NCBI GenBank assembly: GCA_902782505.1
Contig: CACZNO010000217.1
Location: 1-10,693 of the forward strand
Direction: 5' to 3'
Source of the DNA: an uncultured Erysipelotrichaceae bacterium
GTDB lineage: Bacteria > Bacillota_I > Bacilli_A > Erysipelotrichales > Erysipelotrichaceae
DNA length: 10,693 nt
The position numbers and the translations under genes are program-made. Shown here in pieces: positions 219 through 9,735 of this stretch (position 1 is the first letter of the stretch; each line of letters starts with the position of its first letter). The notes beneath the pieces were generated by a model that made no database searches, had not been told where the DNA came from, and saw nothing but the letters and a program-made list of their open reading frames with translations.

Positions 219-908
219 ATGCTGAAGGCGGGATGTGTGATTGCGGTCGAGACGGCGTCTTTCTTCGAAGAATTCGGGAAACCGGATGAGACGCTGTACG
301 CCGGAAAACGGCCGGTCTGGAAGTATAAAAAAGACACGTACGAACTCTACGCGATCCATTCCGGCGCGGGAGAGATTTTTGCGTCCATGGCCGCGCAGCT
401 TCTGATCAGTACCTACAAGATTGATATGCTGTTCAATTTCGGCGTAGTCGGCGGTCTGAACGAGTCGATGGCGCTGGAAAAAATGTGCGTGGTCAAGGAA
501 GTCGTGCATTATGAATTCGACACTTCCGAGATCGACGGATGCGAACCCGGAAGATATCTTCAGTATCCTTCCGCCGCGATTCCGGTGAATGAAAAACTGC
601 TGGAAGCGGCGTTAAGGATTGAACCGTCGCTGAAACCGGTGCGCTGCGCTTCGGGAAACCGGTTTGTCGGAGACCCGGCAAAGAAAAGAGAACTCGCCGA
701 AAAATACGGAGCGGAAATCTGCGAAATGGAAGCCGCGGGGATTCTGTTGACGGCGGACTGGAACGAAGTGCCGTGTCTGATGATCAAGATGGTTTCGGAC
801 GGGGTCGAAGGCGGTGCGGAGGAATTCGCGCGGGAATTGGAGAATACCGGCCGAAAGTGCGCGGCGATTCTGGCAAAAGTTCTGGAAGAAATCGCGGAGG
901 ATCAATGA
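219..908 (+). CDS. MTA/SAH nucleosidase-family protein (nucleoside phosphorylase superfamily)
   Basis: This 229-residue protein has the length and motif order of 5'-methylthioadenosine/S-adenosylhomocysteine nucleosidase, a cytoplasmic enzyme that cleaves the glycosidic bond of MTA or SAH in methionine salvage and methyl recycling. Visible are an N-terminal strand with Glu11 (IAVETASFFEE), the glycine-rich FNFGVVGGL at 72-80, the ribose-binding CEMEAAG at 168-174, and SDG at 193-195, where Asp194 matches the catalytic acid. The usual MEEEV start is altered to VETASF. The segment around 99-117 (EFDTSEIDGCEPGRYLQYP) is not the one I expect for a standard MtnN. The family is therefore secure but the substrate is not; a related purine nucleoside hydrolase or phosphorylase is possible. 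ATG 219 is chosen because GGAGGG lies 6 nt upstream. The stop overlaps the next start (ATGA). Confidence 0.82.
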   Translation: MLKAGCVIAVETASFFEEFGKPDETLYAGKRPVWKYKKDTYELYAIHSGAGEIFASMAAQLLISTYKIDMLFNFGVVGGLNESMALEKMCVVKEVVHYEFDTSEIDGCEPGRYLQYPSAAIPVNEKLLEAALRIEPSLKPVRCASGNRFVGDPAKKRELAEKYGAEICEMEAAGILLTADWNEVPCLMIKMVSDGVEGGAEEFARELENTGRKCAAILAKVLEEIAEDQ

Positions 909-1423
909 AGGACAAAAACGGAATAATCCGGTTATACAATATGATCCTGCCGATCTGGTTACTGGTATGGTGGCCGAGTTATCTGTGGCTGATCCTGATT
1001 CCCTTGAATTACCTTTGGGACCGGCTCATGTTTTCGTTCGCGTTACAGAAAGAAGAAGTCGAAAACCGGAAGAAAATCGCCCGTTATCATACCTGGGAGA
1101 TCTGTCTTGCGGGATTTGCGGCGGATTTTGCGGGTGCGGCGGTGCTGTACTTTATCGCGGTGACTTTCGGGGAGAAAGGATGGGTCTACGAACATATCAC
1201 GGAACATCTTCTCAATCCGTTTACGGATGTGTTCATGTTTCTGCTGGTGTGCTTCAGCATCGCAATCTCCGGGTTACTGGTCTATCTTTTGGACGGAGTC
1301 GTCCTCAGGGGTGCGGTATTACGGTCCGGAGAAGAACTCCGCGGGGATCAGATCCGGAAAATCGCTTTCTGGATGGCCGTTACGACGGCGCCGTATTTCT
1401 ATCTGGTGCCGGTGATCGTGTAA
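905..1423 (+). CDS. Uncharacterised four-helix membrane protein
   Basis: The gene encodes a 172-residue protein that I do not recognise. It has about four hydrophobic segments: residues ~11-36 (very rich in Trp and Leu, LPIWLLVWWPSYLWLILIP), ~66-86, ~105-126 and ~153-172. A charged loop (EKEEVENRKK-like) follows the first segment, and a basic/acidic loop with RSGEELRGDQIRK precedes the last. The start at 905 uses the ATGA overlap with the upstream nucleosidase stop and has GGAGG 4 nt upstream. The frame is open further upstream to 773, but that part only shadows the nucleosidase gene. A clear terminator follows immediately, so this is the last gene of the first operon. It is predicted to sit in the cytoplasmic membrane; its role is unknown. 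Confidence 0.8.
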   Translation: MKDKNGIIRLYNMILPIWLLVWWPSYLWLILIPLNYLWDRLMFSFALQKEEVENRKKIARYHTWEICLAGFAADFAGAAVLYFIAVTFGEKGWVYEHITEHLLNPFTDVFMFLLVCFSIAISGLLVYLLDGVVLRGAVLRSGEELRGDQIRKIAFWMAVTTAPYFYLVPVIV

Positions 1424-1449
1424 AACGCTTGTCTGAGCGTTTTTTCTTT
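1422..1449 (+). terminator. Intrinsic terminator after the membrane-protein gene
   Basis: An 8-bp stem, AAAACGCT (1422-1429) pairing with AGCGTTTT (1436-1443), encloses a 6-nt loop. The run of T that starts in the stem continues to 1445, then CTTT. The hairpin begins within the stop codon of the upstream gene, so the end of translation and of transcription coincide. It separates the first operon from the nuclease-murF operon. Confidence 0.8.
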
Positions 1450-1454
1450 AGGGT

Positions 1455-1483
1455 TTGGAAAATAGTGCTCTGCGCTTTATAAT
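1455..1483 (+). promoter_or_regulatory. Promoter of the nuclease-murF-ligase-racemase-cls operon
   Basis: TTGGAA (1455-1460) and a perfect TATAAT (1478-1483) are separated by 17 bp, a textbook vegetative promoter. The expected transcription start is about 1490, only 2-4 nt before the ATG at 1493. It is the only promoter I can see for the five following genes, which are spaced by 3-4 nt or overlap. Confidence 0.75.
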
Positions 1484-1492
1484 GGATACAGT

Positions 1493-2026
1493 ATGAAAAG
1501 GCGATTTTTCTGGGGCTTGGCGATCGTATTGTTCGGGGTGCTTGTTTTGACGCGTCTTTACCGTGTGCACGCACCGGATCCCGCGGAAGTTCTCATCAAC
1601 GGGCCGAAGACCGGTCAGGTCCGGAAAGTCACTTTGGATTATTGCGTGGACGGTGATACAATGTATTTTTCTGCCGGAAGCGAAGAACTGAAAGTACGGT
1701 TTGCGGGCATTGACGCGCCGGAACTGGAAGACGAAAGCGGCGTCCGCGATCCGCTCGCCGCAAAGGCTAAGGAACGGGCGTGCAATCTGGTGCGCGGGGC
1801 AAAGGAAATTCTCCTCGAAACGCAGGAGGATGACCTTTATGACCGGTACGGAAGGCTTCTGGCGTGGGTGTTTGCGGATAGGGAACTGGTCCAGTATCAA
1901 TTGGTCTACGAAGGTCTGGCAGACACGAAATATCTGAATGAAACGTCGTTATACCGGAAGGAATTGCTGGAAGCGATGCGGTATGCGAGAAAATACAAGC
2001 GCGGCATCTGGGAAACAGGAGAATAG
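1493..2026 (+). CDS. Membrane-anchored SNase-fold (thermonuclease-like) nuclease
   Basis: This 177-residue protein is of the staphylococcal nuclease family, which hydrolyses DNA or RNA with Ca2+. An N-terminal signal/anchor (KRR then hydrophobic residues 5-20) has no obvious cleavage site, so the enzyme probably faces outward, tethered to the membrane. The SNase domain covers ~42-175. It shows VDGDT at 52-56, then VRFAGIDAPE at 68-77, with Arg69, Asp74 and Glu77 matching the metal and catalytic residues. YDRYGRLLAWVF at 116-127 carries Arg121, matching the second catalytic Arg. All key residues look intact. A TAG lies in frame at 1463 and there is no other start codon before 1493, so the start is firm, yet no Shine-Dalgarno sequence precedes it. 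Only 3 nt separate its stop from murF. Confidence 0.88.
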   Translation: MKRRFFWGLAIVLFGVLVLTRLYRVHAPDPAEVLINGPKTGQVRKVTLDYCVDGDTMYFSAGSEELKVRFAGIDAPELEDESGVRDPLAAKAKERACNLVRGAKEILLETQEDDLYDRYGRLLAWVFADRELVQYQLVYEGLADTKYLNETSLYRKELLEAMRYARKYKRGIWETGE

Positions 2027-2029
2027 GAA

Positions 2030-3418
2030 ATGATACAGTTTACATTGGGAGAAGTCATCAAGGCGGTAAACGCGGCGGAAGCGGTGAACGTAGATCCGGA
2101 AAAACGGATCGACGGGGTGACATCCGATTCGAGAAATATCACCGTAGGAAATCTGTTTGTACCGATCAAAGGTGAACGGGTCAACGGACACAGTTTTGTG
2201 GTGTCCTGTATTCAAAACGGCGCGTCCGCTTCTTTCTGGGCGGAAAACGAACCGCACCGGCCGGAAGGGGTTCCGCTGATCATCGTCAAGGATACTGTCA
2301 AGGCGTTACAGGATCTGGCGGCCGCGTACCGGCAGACATTGAAGGCGACCGTGATCGGCGTGACCGGGTCTTCCGGAAAGACTTCGACCAAGGACATCAT
2401 CGCGTCCATCGCGTCGGTAGGATACCGGACCCAGAAGACGTTAGGAAATCACAATAACGAGATCGGTCTTCCGATGACGATTTTGTCCATCCATGAAGAT
2501 ACGCAGGTCGCGGTGGCGGAAATGGGCATCGACGGATTCGGACAGATGGACCTTCTCGGGTCGATTGCCAATCCGGACGTCGCGGTCATCACCAGCATCT
2601 CCGAATCCCATATCGACATGTTCGGATCCTTGGAAAACATCACCGAACAGAAATACAAGATCACGGAATATCTGCGTGAAAACGGCTTGTGCATCTATAA
2701 CGCGGATACCCCGTTATTGGACGATTACGCGAAAGCGCATCCGATTTCCCAGCGCACCGTGTCGTACGGTTTGGAGGAGAAGGCCTCGTTTAGGGCGCTT
2801 ACCAAGCGTTTTGAGAAGGACGGGATTCACTTCACCACACCGGAATTCGGCGGATTTGAGTTCCATTTAGGCTTAATGGGAGACTATGAAGTGCGTAACG
2901 CTTTGGCGGGCGTATTGTGCGGGATTTCGTTAGGGTTAAACGCTGCGGAGATCCAGAAGGGATTCGATGGGGTGGAATTGACCGGCAAGCGGGAAGACAT
3001 CGAACATATCGGCGCTTCCACGGTGATTGACGGGACCTACAATTCCAATCCGGGAAGTCTGGCGGAGACGCTGAGGATGCTGGGAGATTTCCCGGCGGAT
3101 TGTCCGAAAATCGCGATTTTGGGCGATATGTACGGATTGGGGGAACAATCGGCGGCATTGCACGCAAAAGTCGGAAAAGAAGTGGATTACCGCGGAATCG
3201 ATGAATTGTGGACCATCGGGCAGTTTACGCCGGAAATCGGGAAATACGCCGTCAAACGGTTCCCGGATTTGGTGTGGAGACACTTTTCGTCCAAGGAAGA
3301 ACTGCGTGCGGAATGGGTCAAGCTGTGTGAAAAAGAAAATTTCATTATGGCAAAGGCTTCCCGTGCGGTAGAATTAGATATAGTACTACAGGAAGTGAGG
3401 AACGCGTATGAGCGATAA
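2030..3418 (+). CDS. murF: UDP-N-acetylmuramoyl-tripeptide--D-alanyl-D-alanine ligase MurF
   Basis: MurF is the ATP-dependent cytoplasmic ligase that adds the terminal D-Ala-D-X dipeptide to UDP-MurNAc-tripeptide. The protein is 462 residues, normal for the family. Visible motifs are the N-terminal TSDSR (31-35) for UDP binding, the P-loop GVTGSSGKTSTK (110-121), NHNNEIGLPMT (140-150), EMG with the DVAVITSI strand and SHIDMFGS (164-200), NALAGVLCG (290-298), DGTYNSNPGS (334-343) and LGDMYGLGEQS (364-374). The DGTYNSNP and LGDM motifs separate MurF from MurC/D/E. The start has AGGAG 8 nt upstream. Its final 11 nt overlap the ligase gene that makes its dipeptide substrate, an arrangement expected to couple the two products. 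The C-terminal KASR replaces the more usual KGSR, a small change. Confidence 0.96.
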   Translation: MIQFTLGEVIKAVNAAEAVNVDPEKRIDGVTSDSRNITVGNLFVPIKGERVNGHSFVVSCIQNGASASFWAENEPHRPEGVPLIIVKDTVKALQDLAAAYRQTLKATVIGVTGSSGKTSTKDIIASIASVGYRTQKTLGNHNNEIGLPMTILSIHEDTQVAVAEMGIDGFGQMDLLGSIANPDVAVITSISESHIDMFGSLENITEQKYKITEYLRENGLCIYNADTPLLDDYAKAHPISQRTVSYGLEEKASFRALTKRFEKDGIHFTTPEFGGFEFHLGLMGDYEVRNALAGVLCGISLGLNAAEIQKGFDGVELTGKREDIEHIGASTVIDGTYNSNPGSLAETLRMLGDFPADCPKIAILGDMYGLGEQSAALHAKVGKEVDYRGIDELWTIGQFTPEIGKYAVKRFPDLVWRHFSSKEELRAEWVKLCEKENFIMAKASRAVELDIVLQEVRNAYER

Positions 3419-4457
3419 AATCAGAATCGGCGTCCTGTTTGGAGGACAGTCTTCGGAATACAGCGTCAGTTTACACTCGGTATCGTCGGCACTCCGGTCG
3501 ATGCCGGAAGAATATGAAGTTTTGACCTTCGGGATCACCTCGGACGGAAACTGGTATCAATACGAGGGCTCCATTGATGCGATCGAACACGATCACTGGC
3601 TGGAAGGCACCGTTTATCCGGCGACGTTGAGCCTGAATCCGGGAGACCACGGTTTCCTGGTTCATAAAGGAGACAAGGTCGAAACGGTGCGGATCGATGT
3701 GCTGTTCCCGATCATGCACGGGCTGCACGGGGAAGACGGAACCGTACAGGGCGCGTGCGAACTCGCAGGCATTCCGTGCGTAGGATGCGGAATGACTTCC
3801 AGCGCCATCTGCATGGACAAGGAATACACCCACGTCGTCATGGAACACGCGGGCATTCCGATGGCCAAATGGTTCTGCGTCCGCAAGGAAGAAGGCTATG
3901 ACGCGAAAAAACTGTACGAGAAAACCGTCATGGAATTCGGTCTTCCGTGCATCATCAAGCCCTGTAACGCGGGTTCCAGTTACGGTGTTTCCAAGGCCAA
4001 GGACTTTGAAAGCTTCCGTGACGGTCTGGAAGACGCGTTCAAATATGACCGCAAACTGATCATAGAGGAATTCTTAAACGGATTTGAGGTCGGCTGCGCG
4101 GTGTTGGGACAGGTTGATCCGTTACTGGGCGAACCGGACGAAATAGAAATCTCGACGGATATCTTTGATTTCGTGGAAAAATACAATCTCGTCACCTCGA
4201 AGATCCACGTACCGGCGAGAGTTTCTCCGGAAATGAAAGAAAAGATCTACGCTTCGGTGCGTACGATTTACCGGGCTTTGGACTGCAAGGGCATGGCGCG
4301 GGTGGATTGCTTCGTAGTGGGAGAAGAAGTATATCTCAACGAAGTCAATACGATTCCGGGATTCACCTCGGCTTCCCGCTATCCTTCGATGATGAAGGCG
4401 AAGGGCTACAGTTTCACGGATGTGATCCGGATGCTGATCAGGGAGACTTTGAAATAG
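3408..4457 (+). CDS. ddl: D-alanine ligase of the Ddl/Van family with VanG/VanC-type (D-Ala-D-Ser) features
   Basis: This ATP-grasp ligase joins two D-amino acids for MurF. The 349 residues are full length. It shows FGGQSSEYSVSLHS (11-24), MHGLHGEDGTVQG (103-115), IIKPCNAGSSYGV (182-194), and NEVNTIPGFTS (311-321) with the metal-binding Glu/Asn. The specificity parts are unusual for a D-Ala-D-Ala ligase. The omega-loop reads DFVEKYNLVTSKIHVPA (254-270), with EKY followed without a gap by the SKI strand, as in VanC/VanG. SASRYPSMM (321-329) puts Arg at 324, where I recall VanG and VanC2 having the Arg linked to D-Ser selection; ordinary Ddl has Leu or Met there. I infer a D-Ala-D-Ser or dual-specificity enzyme. 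It could instead be the cell's only Ddl working with D-Ala. ATG 3408 lies inside the murF end, with a purine-rich GAGG upstream. Confidence 0.93.
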   Translation: MSDKIRIGVLFGGQSSEYSVSLHSVSSALRSMPEEYEVLTFGITSDGNWYQYEGSIDAIEHDHWLEGTVYPATLSLNPGDHGFLVHKGDKVETVRIDVLFPIMHGLHGEDGTVQGACELAGIPCVGCGMTSSAICMDKEYTHVVMEHAGIPMAKWFCVRKEEGYDAKKLYEKTVMEFGLPCIIKPCNAGSSYGVSKAKDFESFRDGLEDAFKYDRKLIIEEFLNGFEVGCAVLGQVDPLLGEPDEIEISTDIFDFVEKYNLVTSKIHVPARVSPEMKEKIYASVRTIYRALDCKGMARVDCFVVGEEVYLNEVNTIPGFTSASRYPSMMKAKGYSFTDVIRMLIRETLK

Positions 4458-4461
4458 TTGT

Positions 4462-5586
4462 ATGAATCTTGCGCGCGGTTATCTGGAAATTCGAAAGGAT
4501 CTTCTTCAGTCCGACTACATGGAACTGAAGAATTTTCTTACCGGCAAATGTGCGATGATCTGTATTGTCAAATGCGACGGATATGGCTTTGACGGAGTCC
4601 GTGAAGCGCTTCTGTTACAGGAATGGGGCGCGGATTTCTTCGGCGTCGCCTGCAGCGCGGAAGCGGTGATGTTACGGAAAAACGGTATCCGGGGCGATAT
4701 TCTGATCCTCGGTCATACGCTGGAAGAAGCTATTCCCGATTTATGGAAATACGATCTGATCCAGACGGTCGGAGATATCGGATACGGCAGATATCTGGCG
4801 GCAAAGGCTTCCGGGGACCGGGCGTCTGTCCGGGTCCATTTCAAGATCGACACCGGAATGCACCGCCTGGGAATCACGCAGGAAACCCCGATGGAAGCGA
4901 TCCGGAAGCTGTACGATGATCCGTGTCTTCACGCGGAGGGAGCGTTCAGTCATTTCGCCGCGGCGGACAGTTTCCGTGCGGAAGACAAGGCGTTTACCCT
5001 TTGGCAGAAAGAAACCTTTGACCGTTGGCTGAAGAAGGCGGAAGATGCGGGTATGCGATTTGCCTGCACGCACATGTCGGCCAGCGCAGCCATTGTCAAC
5101 TATCCGGAATTCCTGAAGGACTATACGCATTGCCGTCCGGGGATCCTGTTCCATGGGTTTGACAGCGGCGATATGGCACATCCCTATCTGCGGAAGGAAG
5201 TGTTATCATTAAAGAGTTACGTCGGGAAGATCGACGTTTTGCGCAAAGGCGAAACGATCGGTTACGGACGTACATATACCGCGGAAAAGGATTTGACGGT
5301 CGTCACGGTGCCGGTGGGGTACGGAGACGGTATTCCGCGGAATTACAGGGGCGGAGAAGTATTGATTCACGGCGTCCGCTGCCCGATCATCGGACGGATT
5401 TCGATGGATCAGTTATGCGTGGACGCGTCGGAAGCGGGGAATCTTTCGATTGCGGACCCGGTTCTTCTGATCGGAAAGGACCGTGACGAAGAAATCACCT
5501 TAAGGGAGATGGCGGATAAAGCCGGGACGATTCCCAATGAGATCGCGGCGAAGTTCACTTCCCGTCTTCCGAGAATTTATATTTGA
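4462..5586 (+). CDS. Alanine/serine racemase family protein resembling the VanT catalytic domain
   Basis: This fold-type III PLP enzyme has 374 residues, the length of a soluble alanine racemase. PLP Lys37 lies in IVKCDGYGFDG, Arg135 in KIDTGMHRLG, His164 in FSHFAAADS, Arg225 in CRPGILFHG, catalytic Tyr268 in GYGRTYTAEKD and MDQ at 315-317, so catalysis looks intact. Several parts resemble the C-terminal half of VanT serine racemases more than Alr: LILGHT (81-86), KYDLIQTV (96-103), AADS (167-170) and SASAAIVNYPE (206-216). Oddities are the PLP loop (normally KANAYGHG) and FHG in place of LYG at 230-232. There is no membrane domain of the kind that VanT uses for L-Ser uptake. The gene starts 4 nt after the D-Ala ligase with no well-placed ribosome site, so translation is probably coupled. 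It may make D-Ser, D-Ala or both. Confidence 0.88.
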   Translation: MNLARGYLEIRKDLLQSDYMELKNFLTGKCAMICIVKCDGYGFDGVREALLLQEWGADFFGVACSAEAVMLRKNGIRGDILILGHTLEEAIPDLWKYDLIQTVGDIGYGRYLAAKASGDRASVRVHFKIDTGMHRLGITQETPMEAIRKLYDDPCLHAEGAFSHFAAADSFRAEDKAFTLWQKETFDRWLKKAEDAGMRFACTHMSASAAIVNYPEFLKDYTHCRPGILFHGFDSGDMAHPYLRKEVLSLKSYVGKIDVLRKGETIGYGRTYTAEKDLTVVTVPVGYGDGIPRNYRGGEVLIHGVRCPIIGRISMDQLCVDASEAGNLSIADPVLLIGKDRDEEITLREMADKAGTIPNEIAAKFTSRLPRIYI

Positions 5587-7163
5587 GTAAGAGTATGATC
5601 AAGTGGATTGCGAATTTTTTCTGGAAACTGTATAAAATCCTGACGCACCGGATGTTTCTGACGGTGATCCTTTTGTTGGTGCAGTTTGTGGTCATGTATC
5701 TGATGCTGTACTACGCCAACGATTATTCCGTGTATGTACAGGGCGTTTTCCAGTTCATTTCGGTGCTCATGATCATCTATATCCTGAACCAGGACGATAA
5801 TCCCAATGAAAAGATGTCGTTTATCATGTTTATCGCGTTAATTCCGTTCTTCGGAGTTCCGTTCTATATTATCTGGCGCGGGAAAACCGTACATGAAAAA
5901 TACCGTCTGACTCTGGAAAAATCTCATAACCAGGTCAAGCATCTGCACATGCAGGATGAAAGCGTCGGAAACGAATTGCGTGAACTGGACCGCAAACGGT
6001 ACCGCGAGGCGGAATATGTTTACCGTGAAAGCGACTTCCCGGTGCACAAGAATACCTCGACGAAGTATTATCCTTCCGCGGAAGCTCTGTACGAAGAATT
6101 GCTGCCGGCATTGGAGAACGCGAAGCACTTCATCTTCATGGAATTCTTCATCATCAAACACGGTGAAATGTTCGATACGATCATGGAGATCCTGAAGAGA
6201 AAAGTTAAGGAAGGCGTGGAGGTCCGGTTCATGTACGATGATTTCGGATGCGCCGGAAATCTGCCGATGCACTATGACCGGGAATTAAAGGAAATGGGCA
6301 TTGAAGGCGTGATCTTCAATCCGTTCAATCCGCGTCTGACGATCAACCACAACTTCCGCGACCACCGCAAGATCATCGTGATCGACGGATATATCGGGTT
6401 TACCGGCGGATTGAACCTGGCGGATGAGTACATCAACAAGATCTCTCCGTACGGATATTGGAAAGACAGCGGGATCCGTCTGGAAGGGGACGCGGTATGG
6501 AACCTGACGGTTTCGTTCCTGGAAAACTGGGATTTTGCGTCCGAAAGCCATTCCGATTATGCGTTGTTTACACCGCACAGATACCACGAGGAATCGTTTG
6601 AAGCGCTGGACGACGGGTATGTCATGCCGTACGCGGATAATCCGTTAGATGACGAGGAACTCGGACAGTCGGTCTATGTGAACATGATCAATAACGCCGT
6701 GGACTACATCTGGTTCACGACCCCGTATCTGGTGCTGGAGACCTCGGGCCAAAACGCCCTGGAACTCGCGGCGAAACGCGGGGTGGACGTGCGTATCATC
6801 ACGCCGGGGATTCCTGACAACAAGATCCACACCTACGTAGTCACCCGGTCGACTTACCGGCATCTGATCCAGAACGGCGTGCGTATTTATGAATACACAC
6901 CGGGCTTCGTCCACGCGAAAAACGTCCTGTCCGACGATGAGGTCATGTCCTGCGGCACCATCAACCTCGATTACCGCAGTATGTACCACAACTTCGAAAA
7001 CGGCGTCTGGGTATATCGTTCAAAGAGTATCGAAGACATGAAAAAAGACTTCCTTCAGGTGATGGAAGTCTCCAAGGAAATCGATATGGACTGGGTGAAG
7101 AAACGTCCGCTGACGCAGCGTTTTGCCCAATACATCTACCGGATCATGTCGCCGTTCCTATAA
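5583..7163 (+). CDS. cls: Cardiolipin synthase (phospholipase D family)
   Basis: This membrane enzyme makes cardiolipin from two phosphatidylglycerol molecules. The 526 residues begin with about three hydrophobic segments (~24-45, 52-69, 77-98) in the usual Cls order, ending in the PFFGVPFYIIW type segment. Two phospholipase D HKD motifs follow: H261-R-K263 to D268 (DHRKIIVIDG, then FTGGLN) and H444-A-K446 to D451 (FVHAKNVLSDD, then GTINLDYRS). Both are complete, so the enzyme should be active. Two starts are possible: TTG 5583, which overlaps the racemase stop as TTGA, or ATG 5595, four codons later, with a weak GAG-rich site. I kept the longer form. Its location in a wall-precursor operon is notable, and its end overlaps the convergent alr by 6 nt. 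Confidence 0.93.
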   Translation: MSKSMIKWIANFFWKLYKILTHRMFLTVILLLVQFVVMYLMLYYANDYSVYVQGVFQFISVLMIIYILNQDDNPNEKMSFIMFIALIPFFGVPFYIIWRGKTVHEKYRLTLEKSHNQVKHLHMQDESVGNELRELDRKRYREAEYVYRESDFPVHKNTSTKYYPSAEALYEELLPALENAKHFIFMEFFIIKHGEMFDTIMEILKRKVKEGVEVRFMYDDFGCAGNLPMHYDRELKEMGIEGVIFNPFNPRLTINHNFRDHRKIIVIDGYIGFTGGLNLADEYINKISPYGYWKDSGIRLEGDAVWNLTVSFLENWDFASESHSDYALFTPHRYHEESFEALDDGYVMPYADNPLDDEELGQSVYVNMINNAVDYIWFTTPYLVLETSGQNALELAAKRGVDVRIITPGIPDNKIHTYVVTRSTYRHLIQNGVRIYEYTPGFVHAKNVLSDDEVMSCGTINLDYRSMYHNFENGVWVYRSKSIEDMKKDFLQVMEVSKEIDMDWVKKRPLTQRFAQYIYRIMSPFL

Positions 7164-8261
7164 TAATTCATCATGGAACCGTTCTTCAGAAATGTGAACG
7201 GTTTTATTTTCCGAAAGATAGAAACGGGGAATGCGTTCGGAGATGCGGCAGAGAATTTCATGCGGAATCGTTTCCAGATCCCGGGAAACCTCGGTCAGAG
7301 GAATCGTCTGTCCGAACAATTCCACCTGCGTGTGCGGTTCGATGTATTCCGGCAGGCGGACCATCGACTGGTCCATACAGATCCGTCCGACATGCGGCAC
7401 GCGCACGCCGTTGATGCTGACGCAGCGGTGCGCATTGCGCCGGTCCCATCCGTCCGCGTATCCGACCGACATGGTGCCGATCCATTCGTCTTTTTCCGCG
7501 GTGTACGTGGCACCGTATCCGACAGTTTCACCTGCGTGGATTTTTTTCACCAGCGTCAGGGAAGAATACAGGGATAATACCGGTTTGAGATCCGGATGAT
7601 CCGCATAACCGTAAATACCGATGCCCGGACGGATCATGTTGGTGAAGTTTTCGGGGTTATGGAAGACGCCGTCGCTGTTGGACATGTGAATGTAGCGGAA
7701 GGGATAATCCACCGCTTTGACCGTGCGGACGAAGCGTTCGTACTGCGTTTTCATGAAAGCGTCATCCCGTACGTCCGCCGTGGCGTAATGGGAGAAAATA
7801 CCTTCGACGATCGCGCCGCGTGCAAACAGGATGCGTACGGCTTCTTTGATTTCTTCGGCACTGTGAAAACCGATGCGGTTCATGCCGGTATCGACCTTGA
7901 TATGCACGTGTAATCCGCGCAGATCCTTCGGCAATTCCTTTACAAACTCCATGGAGGGAATGGTAAGGGATAAATCGTACTTGACCGCGACATGTTCAAG
8001 GGTCGGTAAAATCGCCCCGAGCACCAGGACCATTCCTGTCACATGATTCTGACGGAGGTGTATTCCTTCTTCCAAAGAGGAAACCGCGAACTTGTCGTAT
8101 CCCCAGCTGTTGGCGCAGCGTGCCATATACGCGTCACCGTGTCCGTACGCGTTGGCCTTCACGACGATCATCACGTCCTTGCCGGAAATCTTCCGGTAAA
8201 GATCTAAATTCGAATGGAACGCGTCCAGGTCAATCTCCGCCCATGTCTGGAATTGTTTCAT
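7158..8261 (-). CDS. alr: Alanine racemase
   Basis: This is a conventional PLP-dependent alanine racemase of 367 residues that interconverts L- and D-Ala to supply peptidoglycan synthesis. It has the standard PLP loop VVKANAYGHGD (Lys35), KVDTGMNRIG (Arg129), FSHYATAD (157-163), HMSNSDG (192-198), RPGIGIYGY (Arg211), catalytic Tyr249 in GYGATYTAEKD and CMDQ at 295-298. The C-terminal ISERIPRFY is followed by ~18 extra residues. The start codon has a strong AGGGGG ribosome site (8270-8275, - strand) 8 nt upstream, and an extended -10 promoter gives a leader of about 30 nt. It is a second racemase beside the VanT-like one at 4462-5586. Its standard motifs suggest that this gene is the housekeeping D-Ala source and frees the other for a different substrate. 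Confidence 0.95.
   Translation of the reverse strand: MKQFQTWAEIDLDAFHSNLDLYRKISGKDVMIVVKANAYGHGDAYMARCANSWGYDKFAVSSLEEGIHLRQNHVTGMVLVLGAILPTLEHVAVKYDLSLTIPSMEFVKELPKDLRGLHVHIKVDTGMNRIGFHSAEEIKEAVRILFARGAIVEGIFSHYATADVRDDAFMKTQYERFVRTVKAVDYPFRYIHMSNSDGVFHNPENFTNMIRPGIGIYGYADHPDLKPVLSLYSSLTLVKKIHAGETVGYGATYTAEKDEWIGTMSVGYADGWDRRNAHRCVSINGVRVPHVGRICMDQSMVRLPEYIEPHTQVELFGQTIPLTEVSRDLETIPHEILCRISERIPRFYLSENKTVHISEERFHDELL
7176..7210 (+). terminator. Probable intrinsic terminator of the cls operon, inside the alr 3' end
   Basis: AACCGTTC (7177-7184) pairs with GAACGGTT (7196-7203) across an 11-nt loop and is followed by TTATTTT. This gives 8 Watson-Crick pairs plus one G-T. It reads as a terminator only on the + strand; on the - strand no T-run follows. 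It lies within the last codons of the convergent alr gene, so the + strand mRNA would run about 50 nt antisense to alr. Confidence 0.6.
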
Positions 8262-8382: not shown

Positions 8383-8458
8383 GGAGGTTTAGCTCAGTTG
8401 GGAGAGCATCTGCCTTACAAGCAGAGGGTCGGGGGTTCGAGTCCCTCAACCTCCACCA
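8383..8458 (+). tRNA. tRNA-Val (anticodon TAC)
   Basis: The acceptor stem GGAGGTT pairs with AACCTCC. The anticodon loop CTTACAA, in a CTGC/GCAG stem, gives TAC. The T arm contains GGTTCGAGTCC and the CCA end is encoded. It is the first of six tandem tRNA genes. Confidence 0.96.
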
Positions 8459-8482
8459 TGTGTATTACCGGTTAGGACTAGC

Positions 8483-8558
8483 GCCGGATTAGCTCAATTG
8501 GCAGAGCAACTGATTTGTAATCAGTAGGTTGTAGGTTCAAGTCCTATATCCGGCACCA
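8483..8558 (+). tRNA. tRNA-Thr (anticodon TGT)
   Basis: The acceptor GCCGGAT pairs with ATCCGGC. The loop TTTGTAA, in an ACTGA/TCAGT stem, gives TGT. CCA is encoded. It lies 24 nt after tRNA-Val, the widest gap in the cluster. Confidence 0.96.
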
Positions 8559-8565
8559 TGAAAGT

Positions 8566-8650
8566 GGGGAGGTAGCGAAGTGGCTAAACGCGGCTGACTG
8601 TAACTCAGCTCTCTCCGAGTTCGGCAGTTCGAATCTGCCCCTCCCCACCA
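8566..8650 (+). tRNA. tRNA-Tyr (anticodon GTA)
   Basis: This is an 85-nt class II tRNA with a long variable arm (CTCTCTCCGAG region). The acceptor GGGGAGG pairs with CCTCCCC. The loop CTGTAAC, in a GCTGA/TCAGC stem, gives GTA. CCA is encoded. Confidence 0.96.
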
Positions 8651-8658
8651 CTTTTTCT

Positions 8659-8734
8659 TGGGGTATAGCCAAGCGGTAAGGCATCAGATTTTGATTCTGA
8701 CATCTCCCTGGTTCGAATCCAGGTACCCCAGCCA
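8659..8734 (+). tRNA. tRNA-Gln (anticodon TTG)
   Basis: The acceptor TGGGGTA pairs with TACCCCA, the usual weak first pair of tRNA-Gln. The loop TTTTGAT, in a TCAGA/TCTGA stem, gives TTG. The discriminator is G and CCA is encoded. Confidence 0.96.
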
Positions 8735-8745
8735 CAAAGGCAAAT

Positions 8746-8820
8746 GACCCGTTAGCTCAGTGGTAGAGCATCTGACTTTTAATCAGAGGGTCGTGCGTTC
8801 GAGTCGCACACGGGTCACCA
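8746..8820 (+). tRNA. tRNA-Lys (anticodon TTT)
   Basis: The acceptor GACCCGT pairs with ACGGGTC. The loop CTTTTAA, in a CTGA/TCAG stem, gives TTT. The T arm has GTTCGAGTC and CCA is encoded. Confidence 0.96.
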
Positions 8821-8829
8821 CTTATACTT

Positions 8830-8903
8830 GCGGATGTAGTTCAGTGGTAGAACTTCAGCCTTCCAAGCTGACTATGCGAGTTCGATTCTCGTCATCCGCT
8901 CCA
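8830..8903 (+). tRNA. tRNA-Gly (anticodon TCC)
   Basis: The acceptor GCGGATG pairs with CATCCGC. The loop CTTCCAA, in a CAGC/GCTG stem, gives TCC. The discriminator is T and CCA is encoded. It is the last tRNA of the operon, followed after 9 nt by the terminator. Confidence 0.96.
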
Positions 8904-8912
8904 TTGCGTAAG

Positions 8913-8939
8913 AAAAGGAACCTTGAAGGTTCCTTTTTT
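8913..8939 (+). terminator. Bidirectional terminator between the tRNA operon and the phosphatase gene
   Basis: AAAAGGAACC (8913-8922) pairs with GGTTCCTTTT (8928-8937) around a 5-nt loop, followed by more T (to 8939). Read on the - strand it is also a hairpin followed by TTTTCTT. It can therefore stop both the tRNA transcript and the convergent phosphatase transcript, whose TAA (8938-8940) lies in its T-run. Confidence 0.85.
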
Positions 8940-9735
8940 ATTCTGTTTCGGGATCCAGATACATCTTCCGCAGAGTTCCCAGATCTTTCGCTGTAAGCCC
9001 GTATTCTTTTTCAAAGAAGTTTTCATAAGTGTCGTAGCGTTCCTGGATCTCCGCCATGAACATGTGCGCCGATTCCGGCAGGGAACCTTCGATCGCAGTC
9101 AGAAAGGTGCGGTAATTCTTGCTGATTTTCGGAAGGATCCCGCGGCGTTTGATGCGGTTTTCGATGAAGTCCTTCCGGTATTCGTTGGTCAGCAGATAAT
9201 CTTCCAGAATGTGTTTTTCCGGTACCCCCAGCGCCAGAAGGATCAAGATCGCCGCGATGCCGGTGCGGTCTTTTCCTTGGGAACAATGTACCAGGATCGG
9301 CGTGTTTCCCTCCAGGATCTCCCGGAAAAGAATCCGGTAGGCTTCGTTGGAATACGCCAGCGCCGAGAAATAACTGGCGACTAACCGCGATACCAGGTTT
9401 CCGTGCTGGTCTTCGTCGACGATCATTCCCCAAAGCTCCCGGAAGGAATAGTTCAGATCTTCCAGAATGTTTCCGAAACCTGCGCAGACTTCAATGACCC
9501 GGATATCCCCGTCTCTGGGATCAGGCAGTTTTCTGACCCGTCTTGGTGCGCGCAGATCAATGACTGTCCGGATGCCGAGATCTTTCAGAGCCTCGATTTC
9601 TTCCGCAAGGAAAAGACCCGGTGCCCCGCTGCGGAAAAACACGCCGCGTTTTACCGTTCCGTTGTACGCCGAAGGATAGCCTCCGATATCACGGAAATTC
9701 GTTTCTTTACGGAATCGTTCGTCAGGTTTGTTCAT
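8938..9735 (-). CDS. Tyrosine-protein phosphatase (LipA/PtpB-like, Y_phosphatase3 family)
   Basis: This 265-residue phosphatase belongs to the family that includes Listeria LipA and mycobacterial PtpB, which act on phosphotyrosine and sometimes on phosphoserine/threonine or phosphoinositides. Visible are the N-terminal NFRDIGGYP (13-21), LRAPRRVRKLPDP (61-73), a long helical insert, and the P-loop HCSQGKDRTG (150-159), with nucleophile Cys151 and Arg157. The Lys-Asp pair (155-156) in the loop is the family hallmark. There is no signal peptide, so it is probably cytoplasmic. The start is fixed: an in-frame TAG lies just upstream, no other start codon intervenes, and NFRDIGG begins at residue 13. 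There is no Shine-Dalgarno site, and the -10 box ends 6 nt before the ATG. The substrate cannot be told from the sequence. Confidence 0.9.
   Translation of the reverse strand: MNKPDERFRKETNFRDIGGYPSAYNGTVKRGVFFRSGAPGLFLAEEIEALKDLGIRTVIDLRAPRRVRKLPDPRDGDIRVIEVCAGFGNILEDLNYSFRELWGMIVDEDQHGNLVSRLVASYFSALAYSNEAYRILFREILEGNTPILVHCSQGKDRTGIAAILILLALGVPEKHILEDYLLTNEYRKDFIENRIKRRGILPKISKNYRTFLTAIEGSLPESAHMFMAEIQERYDTYENFFEKEYGLTAKDLGTLRKMYLDPETE

What the first reader, a model, noticed from the sequence alone, without database searches (positions are those of the whole stretch)
2030..5586. murF, VanG-like ligase and VanT-like racemase in one operon: a possible built-in D-Ala-D-Ser cell-wall pathway
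Seen: murF overlaps a ligase with an EKY omega-loop running straight into SKIHVPA and with Arg324 in SASRYP. A racemase-family gene with VanT-like segments follows 4 nt later. Known: in VanC/VanG resistance, D-Ala-D-Ser ends lower vancomycin binding, and the loop and this Arg are tied to D-Ser selection. Intrinsic low-level resistance with D-Ser-ending precursors has been reported in Clostridium innocuum. Inferred: this host makes D-Ser-ending or mixed precursors constitutively from a housekeeping operon. No VanRS, VanXY or VanY gene is in the window, so this would differ from acquired van clusters.
Basis: partly seen in the sequence, partly recalled or inferred. Interest (0 to 1): 0.72.

Follow-up and report, generated by a model that had tools for sequence, protein, structure and literature searches.

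The report
Housekeeping D-Ala-D-Ser cell-wall operon
A bacterium related to Erysipelothrix seems to end its cell-wall peptide in D-serine instead of D-alanine, using an everyday operon and not a resistance island; this could explain natural vancomycin resistance in its relatives, but the chemistry has not been measured.

Summary
In detail: murF (2030-3418), a Van-type ligase (3408-4457) and a VanT-like racemase (4462-5586) sit in one operon; an Alr-type racemase (7158-8261, minus) lies next to it. The ligase falls with VanG/VanA-type ligases and apart from presumed D-Ala-D-Ala ligases (100/100) and keeps the VanG Asp/Phe/Arg pocket. The racemase has the VanT Asn at the Alr Tyr354 site. The 88%-complete genome shows one ligase, one murF, two racemases and no VanY-domain gene. 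Of 61 family genomes read (chosen for a Van-like ligase), 44 have this murF-ligase-racemase cassette; in 28 of the 44 no other ligase was found, among them Erysipelothrix genomes. A ligase named Clostridium innocuum, a species reported to make serine-ended precursors, has the same pocket. Most likely: constitutive D-Ala-D-Ser ends. Not shown: enzyme activity, precursors, MIC. Against: EKY and Arg alone are not diagnostic; both proteins miss the VanG/VanT cut-offs and pass broad D-Ala-D-Ala/Alr ones; in 31 of the 44 the Asn racemase is the only one found; the pocket/Asn co-change is not significant once relatedness is counted. A known kind of pathway in a new, apparently sole-ligase form.

The parts
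1422..1443 (+). Terminator-like hairpin ending the upstream unit
   Evidence: 19 such sites found against 12.8 (sd 3.0) expected, so weak
1455..1483 (+). Promoter-like site before the operon (10 of 12 matches, 17-nt spacer)
   Evidence: 13 such sites found against 9.0 (sd 2.8) expected, so weak
1493..2026 (+). Staphylococcal-nuclease-like gene, first gene of the predicted operon, 3 nt before murF
   Evidence: PF00565 68.8 bits; spacing
2030..3418 (+). murF
   Evidence: TIGR01143 358 bits, over its cut-off; only murF match in the genome at E <= 1e-30
3408..4457 (+). Van-type D-Ala-D-X ligase, predicted D-Ala-D-Ser ligase
   Evidence: Best NCBIfam model VanG 421.4 bits, under its cut-off of 495; best solved relative VanG 4fu0; tree
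4137..4139 (+). Codon of Asp244 (VanG Asp243 equivalent)
   Evidence: Alignments
4164..4166 (+). Codon of Phe253 (VanG Phe252 equivalent)
   Evidence: Alignments
4176..4184 (+). Codons of Glu257-Lys258-Tyr259, the omega-loop EKY
4377..4379 (+). Codon of Arg324
4462..5586 (+). VanT-like soluble racemase (racS), predicted serine racemase, probably also active on alanine
   Evidence: Best NCBIfam model vanT-G-Cterm 338.2 bits, under its cut-off of 460; best solved relative serine racemase 4ecl; tree
5536..5538 (+). Codon of Asn359, at the Alr Tyr354 site
5583..7163 (+). Cardiolipin synthase, last gene of the predicted operon
   Evidence: TIGR04265 343.6 bits, over its cut-off of 290
7158..8261 (-). 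Alr-type alanine racemase (racA), predicted source of D-Ala
   Evidence: alr TIGR00492 319.3 bits against vanT-G-Cterm 274.8; best solved relatives are alanine racemases; groups with solo Alr rows

Best explanation
This is a housekeeping D-Ala-D-Ser pathway. Shown by sequence: one operon holds MurF, a ligase of the Van (D-Ala-D-X) clade with the D-Ser-type pocket, and a soluble racemase of the VanT clade with the serine-racemase Asn; an Alr-type racemase lies next to it; no other ligase, murF or VanY-domain gene was found in the 88%-complete genome. Inferred: racA makes D-Ala, racS makes D-Ser, the ligase joins them, and MurF adds D-Ala-D-Ser to the stem peptide. Lipid II then ends in D-Ser constitutively (with some D-Ala possible), and vancomycin binds it less well. 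A D,D-dipeptidase is not needed because no dedicated D-Ala-D-Ala ligase competes.
For: Ligase: 46 Van-type rows including the window, VanG and VanA against 14 presumed D-Ala-D-Ala ligases, 100/100; Asp/Phe/Arg pocket as in VanG. Racemase: in one clade of 82 rows with VanTG and the other cassette racemases; Asn at the site where VanT has Asn and alanine racemases have Tyr. Genome: one ligase, one murF, two racemases, no VanY domain; the sister genome G001 gives the same counts. Family: 44 of 61 genomes read have the cassette, 28 of the 44 with no other ligase. Co-loss of ligase pocket and racemase Asn in G271, G258 and G026. A ligase named C. innocuum has the same pocket, and that species is reported to make serine-ended precursors (passages).
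Against: No activity or precursor data. The VanG and VanT models are not reached (421.4 of 495; 338.2 of 460), while broad D-Ala-D-Ala and Alr models are passed; these models also score highest on G026, whose pocket is lost, so their ranking does not follow the pocket. In 31 of 44 cassette genomes the Asn racemase is the only one found, so it must make D-Ala too. G009 has the ligase pocket but a Tyr racemase, and 5 further loci have the pocket with Q, V, I or P. The controlled co-change test is not significant. A 112-row quick tree put clostridial ligases of the D-Ala-D-Ala kind inside the Van-type rows on unstarred branches. The genome is 88% complete.
Confidence: 0.65

Rival explanations
1. 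Ordinary D-Ala-D-Ala synthesis by proteins of Van-type ancestry: the ligase makes mainly D-Ala-D-Ala and racS is a second alanine racemase.
For: Broad D-Ala-D-Ala and Alr models are passed. Many cassette genomes have no other racemase (31 of 44). Relatives G271, G258 and G026 with a D-Ala-type pocket show that such ligases can change product (inferred). D-Ser ligase VanC2 also makes D-Ala-D-Ala (PMC12004154, passages).
Against: The D-Ser-type pocket and the Asn are kept together in the window, G001 and all four g19 genomes read. The window genome already has a separate Alr-type racemase.
Confidence: 0.17
2. Mixed wall: a canonical murF-ddl pair exists in the 12% of the genome that is missing, and the cassette adds D-Ser ends beside D-Ala ends, as reported in outline for mixed cases.
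For: Three of four g19 genomes, the nearest genus, have a second, canonical ligase, and G019 and G245 a second murF-like gene beside it. The own genome is 88% complete.
Against: Both genomes of the genus lack ligase and murF of that type; if 88% completeness applied independently, both missing would be about 1 to 2% (rough, since gaps are not independent).
Confidence: 0.13
3. D-Ala-D-lactate synthesis: the ligase uses D-lactate.
For: VanA shares the Asp, Phe and Arg positions.
Against: The Lys-Tyr of the omega loop is kept as in VanG, while VanA differs there; the operon has a racemase and no dehydrogenase.
Confidence: 0.03
4. A decayed or captured acquired vanG cluster that gives inducible resistance.
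For: VanG and VanT are the closest solved relatives.
Against: murF is part of the cassette, the racemase has no membrane domain (374 aa), no VanY-domain gene is in the genome, and in G067 and G020 the real vanG-like arrangement, with a VanY-domain gene after the ligase, looks different.
Confidence: 0.02

Closest known systems
Intrinsic serine-ended precursor pathway of Clostridium innocuum (David et al. 2004, not held; known here through PMC8888209 and PMC7018531)
   Same: Chromosomal genes for a serine-ended precursor in a species with a ligase of the same clade and pocket (P0295).
   Different: P0295 has Gly-Lys-Tyr, the window Glu-Lys-Tyr. P0295's nearest cassettes (G065, G238) lie in genomes that also have a canonical ligase, whereas none was found in the window genome. 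That P0295 is the gene studied in 2004 is inferred.
Acquired vanG/vanC/vanE-type clusters
   Same: Ligase pocket and racemase Asn; common ligase-racemase ancestry in both trees.
   Different: Here murF is in the operon, the racemase is soluble, and no VanY-domain gene was found; no regulator among the window proteins scanned.
murF-ligase-racemase cassettes of Erysipelothrix and other Erysipelotrichaceae
   Same: Same gene order and pockets, often the only ligase found.
   Different: Many have Gly-Lys-Tyr in the loop and a single racemase; five loci fuse murF and ligase.
Intrinsic D-Ala-D-lactate walls of Leuconostoc and lactobacilli (recalled)
   Same: An altered terminus as normal wall chemistry with intrinsic glycopeptide resistance.
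   Different: D-lactate, not D-Ser, and a differently altered ddl (recalled, not tested here).

Membership tests
Van-type (D-Ala-D-X) ligases | Grouping with VanA/VanG and apart from D-Ala-D-Ala ligases | tested here: met
   46 against 14 rows, 100/100; in the larger quick tree clostridial rows were inside on unstarred branches
[quoted passage not shown]
   421.4 bits, best model but under the cut-off
D-Ala-D-Ser ligases | Asp243, Phe252, Arg324 of VanG (importance recalled) with the Lys-Tyr loop | tested here: met
   Asp244, Phe253, Arg324, Lys258-Tyr259
D-Ala-D-Ser ligases | Use of D-Ser as second substrate | not testable with these tools
   Needs enzyme assay or precursor mass spectrometry
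D-Ala-D-Ala ligase (broad) | TIGR01205 and NF002528 cut-offs | tested here: met
   284.9 over 245.65 and 344.6 over 262; broad subfamily models, passed also by Erysipelothrix and G068 cassette ligases
VanT serine racemase | NF033131 score over the cut-off of 460 | tested here: not met
   338.2 bits, best model but under the cut-off
VanT serine racemase | Asn at the Alr Tyr354 site | tested here: met
   Asn359; role of the site and Asn in VanT from PMC3485190, passages
VanT serine racemase | N-terminal membrane domain | tested here: not met
   374 aa, catalytic part only; membrane-type VanT model matched only in its C-terminal part
Acquired van cluster | VanXY/VanY-type peptidase | tested here: not met
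   No PF02557 match in G000 or G001; 22 of 24 genomes searched had one. VanX (PF01427) was not searched
Acquired van cluster | VanR/VanS regulators | tested here: inconclusive
   None among window proteins scanned; the rest of the genome was not searched
C. innocuum-type intrinsic pathway | Serine-ended precursors made constitutively | not testable with these tools
   Needs LC-MS of precursors

The most novel reading that the evidence does not exclude
A large part of the Erysipelotrichaceae, Erysipelothrix included, has replaced D-Ala-D-Ala by D-Ala-D-Ser as its normal and only stem-peptide end, with its own MurF, ligase and racemase. Other lineages keep a complete D-Ala-D-Ala set beside it, and one lineage (G023/G026 genera) went back to D-Ala-D-Ala by changing ligase and racemase pockets together. 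The acquired vanG/vanT pairs and this cassette descend from one ligase-racemase pair. This would explain the vancomycin resistance of Erysipelothrix.
Probability: 0.45. Interest if true: 0.8.

Novelty: new variant of a known kind. Interest (0 to 1): 0.63.

Why it matters
D-Ala-D-Ser is mostly met as a resistance trait added to a D-Ala-D-Ala wall. Here it looks like the normal wall chemistry of a lineage, with no ordinary ligase found. For E. rhusiopathiae a 2022 genome paper (PMC9637936, passages read) reports a vancomycin MIC of 32 mg/L, infers D-Ala-D-Ala from the murF annotation, offers a vex23-vncRS locus as one candidate and says further investigation is needed. The cassette gives a testable alternative for the genus. 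It also shows that broad models name these genes D-Ala-D-Ala ligase and alanine racemase, so such a pathway is easily overlooked.

Tried and rejected
Rejected: EKY plus Arg324 as proof of D-Ser use (EKY occurs with a D-Ala-type pocket in L162, L163 and L172; VanA shares the Arg). Rejected: a second ligase in the own genome; the two weak PF07478 matches on contig C120 read as other ATP-grasp proteins (my reading, no family scan was run on them). Not an answer to D-Ala supply: D-amino-acid aminotransferase matched in 2 of 24 genomes. Led to no significance: the relatedness-controlled test of co-change. Model scores do not separate pocket types. Papers on VanT (2015), VanG (2012) and C. innocuum (2004) are not held. 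The ten paper searches (listings, with passages read in some papers) showed no paper that names a D-Ser pathway in Erysipelothrix; the library lacks most subscription papers. E. rhusiopathiae itself was not seen by name among the hits; the genus is named through P0122, P0125, P0156 and P0182 (and P0176, a MAG). No structure prediction was run.
Full report
What is there. The window is contig C217 of a 1.46-Mb, 88%-complete draft genome. The same family code holds Dielma fastidiosa: G024 contig C3 and NZ_HE578925.1 have the same length, and their ligases are identical. A ligase 63% identical to the window's is named Erysipelotrichaceae bacterium. The host is therefore taken to be an Erysipelotrichaceae. 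From 1493 to 7163 five genes lie head to tail with gaps of 3, -11, 4 and -4 nt: nuclease-like, murF, ligase, racemase (racS), cardiolipin synthase. Promoter-like and terminator-like sites stand before the first (barely above chance). A second racemase (racA, 7158-8261, minus) converges on the end.

The ligase. Its best curated model is VanG, 421.4 bits under a cut-off of 495; it passes two broad D-Ala-D-Ala subfamily models. Its best solved relative is VanG 4fu0. It has the equivalents of VanG Asp243, Phe252 and Arg324 (their importance is recalled) and the Lys-Tyr loop. In a 60-row tree, 46 Van-type rows (window, cassettes, VanG, VanA) stand against 14 presumed D-Ala-D-Ala ligases (5 family ddl, 9 clostridial rows with a Tyr/Met pocket; the product assignment is mine) with 100/100 support; the window groups with genus g19 at 100/99. 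A quicker 112-row tree placed the clostridial rows inside on unstarred branches of 85-88, so the finer order is unsure.

The racemases. racS is closest to VanT (338.2 bits, cut-off 460; alr 264.3 bits) and to serine racemase 4ecl. It falls with VanTG and the cassette racemases in a clade of 82 rows (97) and has Asn at the Tyr354 site. That site bears on substrate choice and VanT has Asn there (PMC3485190, passages). racA is closest to alanine racemases, groups with solo Alr rows, and has His at the site, as has its counterpart in G001. Of 41 racemases read with no ligase frame in the locus, 38 have Tyr; the others are Leu (L207), Asn (L204, at a contig edge) and Ile (L211, which belongs to the G020 vanG-like locus).

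The genome. One ligase, one murF, two Alr-family racemases, both in the window, and no VanY-domain gene. The only other genome of the genus, G001, also 88% complete, gives the same counts. Absence is likely, not proven.

The family. Of 272 genomes searched, the listing shows 108 (my count) with a hit at E <= 2e-58, a rough mark of the Van type; many others have only a canonical-type ligase. I read loci of 60 of these plus the window. Of the 61, 44 have murF, ligase pocket Asp/Phe/Arg and an Asn racemase together; in 28 of the 44 no other ligase was found at E <= 1e-15 (20 of the 28 in genomes at least 90% complete), and in 16 there is a further one. Three have the cassette with a lost pocket (below), and G009 has the pocket with a Tyr racemase. 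Thirteen loci show no murF; 12 of those 13 genomes have two or more ligases (exception G033), but the loci of G138 and G117 end too soon upstream to judge. In G067 and G020 a VanY-domain gene follows the ligase. Among 24 genomes searched for murF, G019, G065 and G014, for example, have a second murF-like gene right beside the canonical ddl. Five loci fuse murF and ligase in one frame of 785-814 aa.

Erysipelothrix. Genus g62 is Erysipelothrix by named hits. Nearly complete genomes of it, several in one contig, have one ligase and, in the two searched, one murF. Four genomes checked have two racemases each; the cassette copy has Asn in all four, and the one solo copy read (G198) has Tyr. One of 13 genomes of the genus, G201, shows no ligase. 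Of four named ligases, three have the pocket; E. larvae does not.

Natural controls. In G271, G258 and G026 the ligase pocket reads Phe or Tyr, Tyr, Leu and the racemase has Asp or His instead of Asn; each genome has one ligase and one racemase. Over 78 pairs, 63 have both features, 8 neither, 6 the pocket only, 1 the Asn only; two pairs are doubles of one genome (L062/L159, L107/L186), leaving 76 (62, 7, 6, 1). With relatedness counted, 3 independent pairs remain on starred branches, 2.0 agreeing and 0.1 opposing, which cannot reach significance.

Literature calibration. C. innocuum is said to resist vancomycin presumably through two chromosomal genes for a serine-ended precursor (PMC8888209; also PMC7018531; passages). 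A ligase cluster of 400 members named C. innocuum (P0295) has the same pocket with Gly-Lys-Tyr, and is 79% identical to the cassette ligase of G065. That it is the gene studied in 2004 is inferred. VanC2, a D-Ser ligase, also makes D-Ala-D-Ala (PMC12004154, passages), so mixed ends are possible.

Weak points. In 31 of 44 cassette genomes (24 of them at least 90% complete) the Asn racemase is the only one found, so there it must make D-Ala too; D-amino-acid aminotransferase matched in only 2 of 24 genomes. Asn thus marks a serine-capable enzyme, not a serine-only one. VanG and VanT models score highest also on G026, whose pocket is lost, and on the Erysipelothrix ligase a D-Ala-D-Ala model scores slightly higher than VanG (314.0 against 309.9).

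Verdict. A built-in D-Ala-D-Ser pathway is well supported by sequence and unmeasured. It is a known kind of pathway in a new form: a murF-linked housekeeping cassette that seems to be the only ligase system in this genus and in many relatives.

Noticed in passing
window 7260-7262 (codon in the minus-strand racemase 7158-8261): The Alr-type racemase has His at the Tyr354 site, as has its counterpart in G001 (L140), while 38 of 41 other racemases read without a ligase beside them have Tyr.
   Followed up: partly
L175, L177, L188, L190, L191: murF and the Van-type ligase are one fused frame of 785-814 aa in five genomes (G028, G061, G187, G009, G008).
   Followed up: partly
genomes G016 and G188 (98% and 99% complete): No D-Ala ligase and no Alr-family racemase was found in either; G069 (99%) has a racemase but no ligase match.
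   Followed up: no
P0182 (Erysipelothrix larvae ligase): Reads Val, Phe and Phe at the three pocket positions (VFEDKYF), unlike the three other named Erysipelothrix ligases.
   Followed up: no
L025 (G054:C24:31742-32761): A VanG-like ligase frame with two stop codons inside; left as it is.
   Followed up: no
window 8383-8903: Cluster of six tRNA genes on the plus strand: Val, Thr, Tyr, Gln, Lys, Gly.
   Followed up: no
window 8938-9735 (minus): Tyrosine-phosphatase-family protein, PF13350, 184.7 bits.
   Followed up: no
window 219-908 (plus): Nucleoside-phosphorylase-family protein (PF01048), distantly like MTA/SAH nucleosidase and under those models' cut-offs.
   Followed up: no
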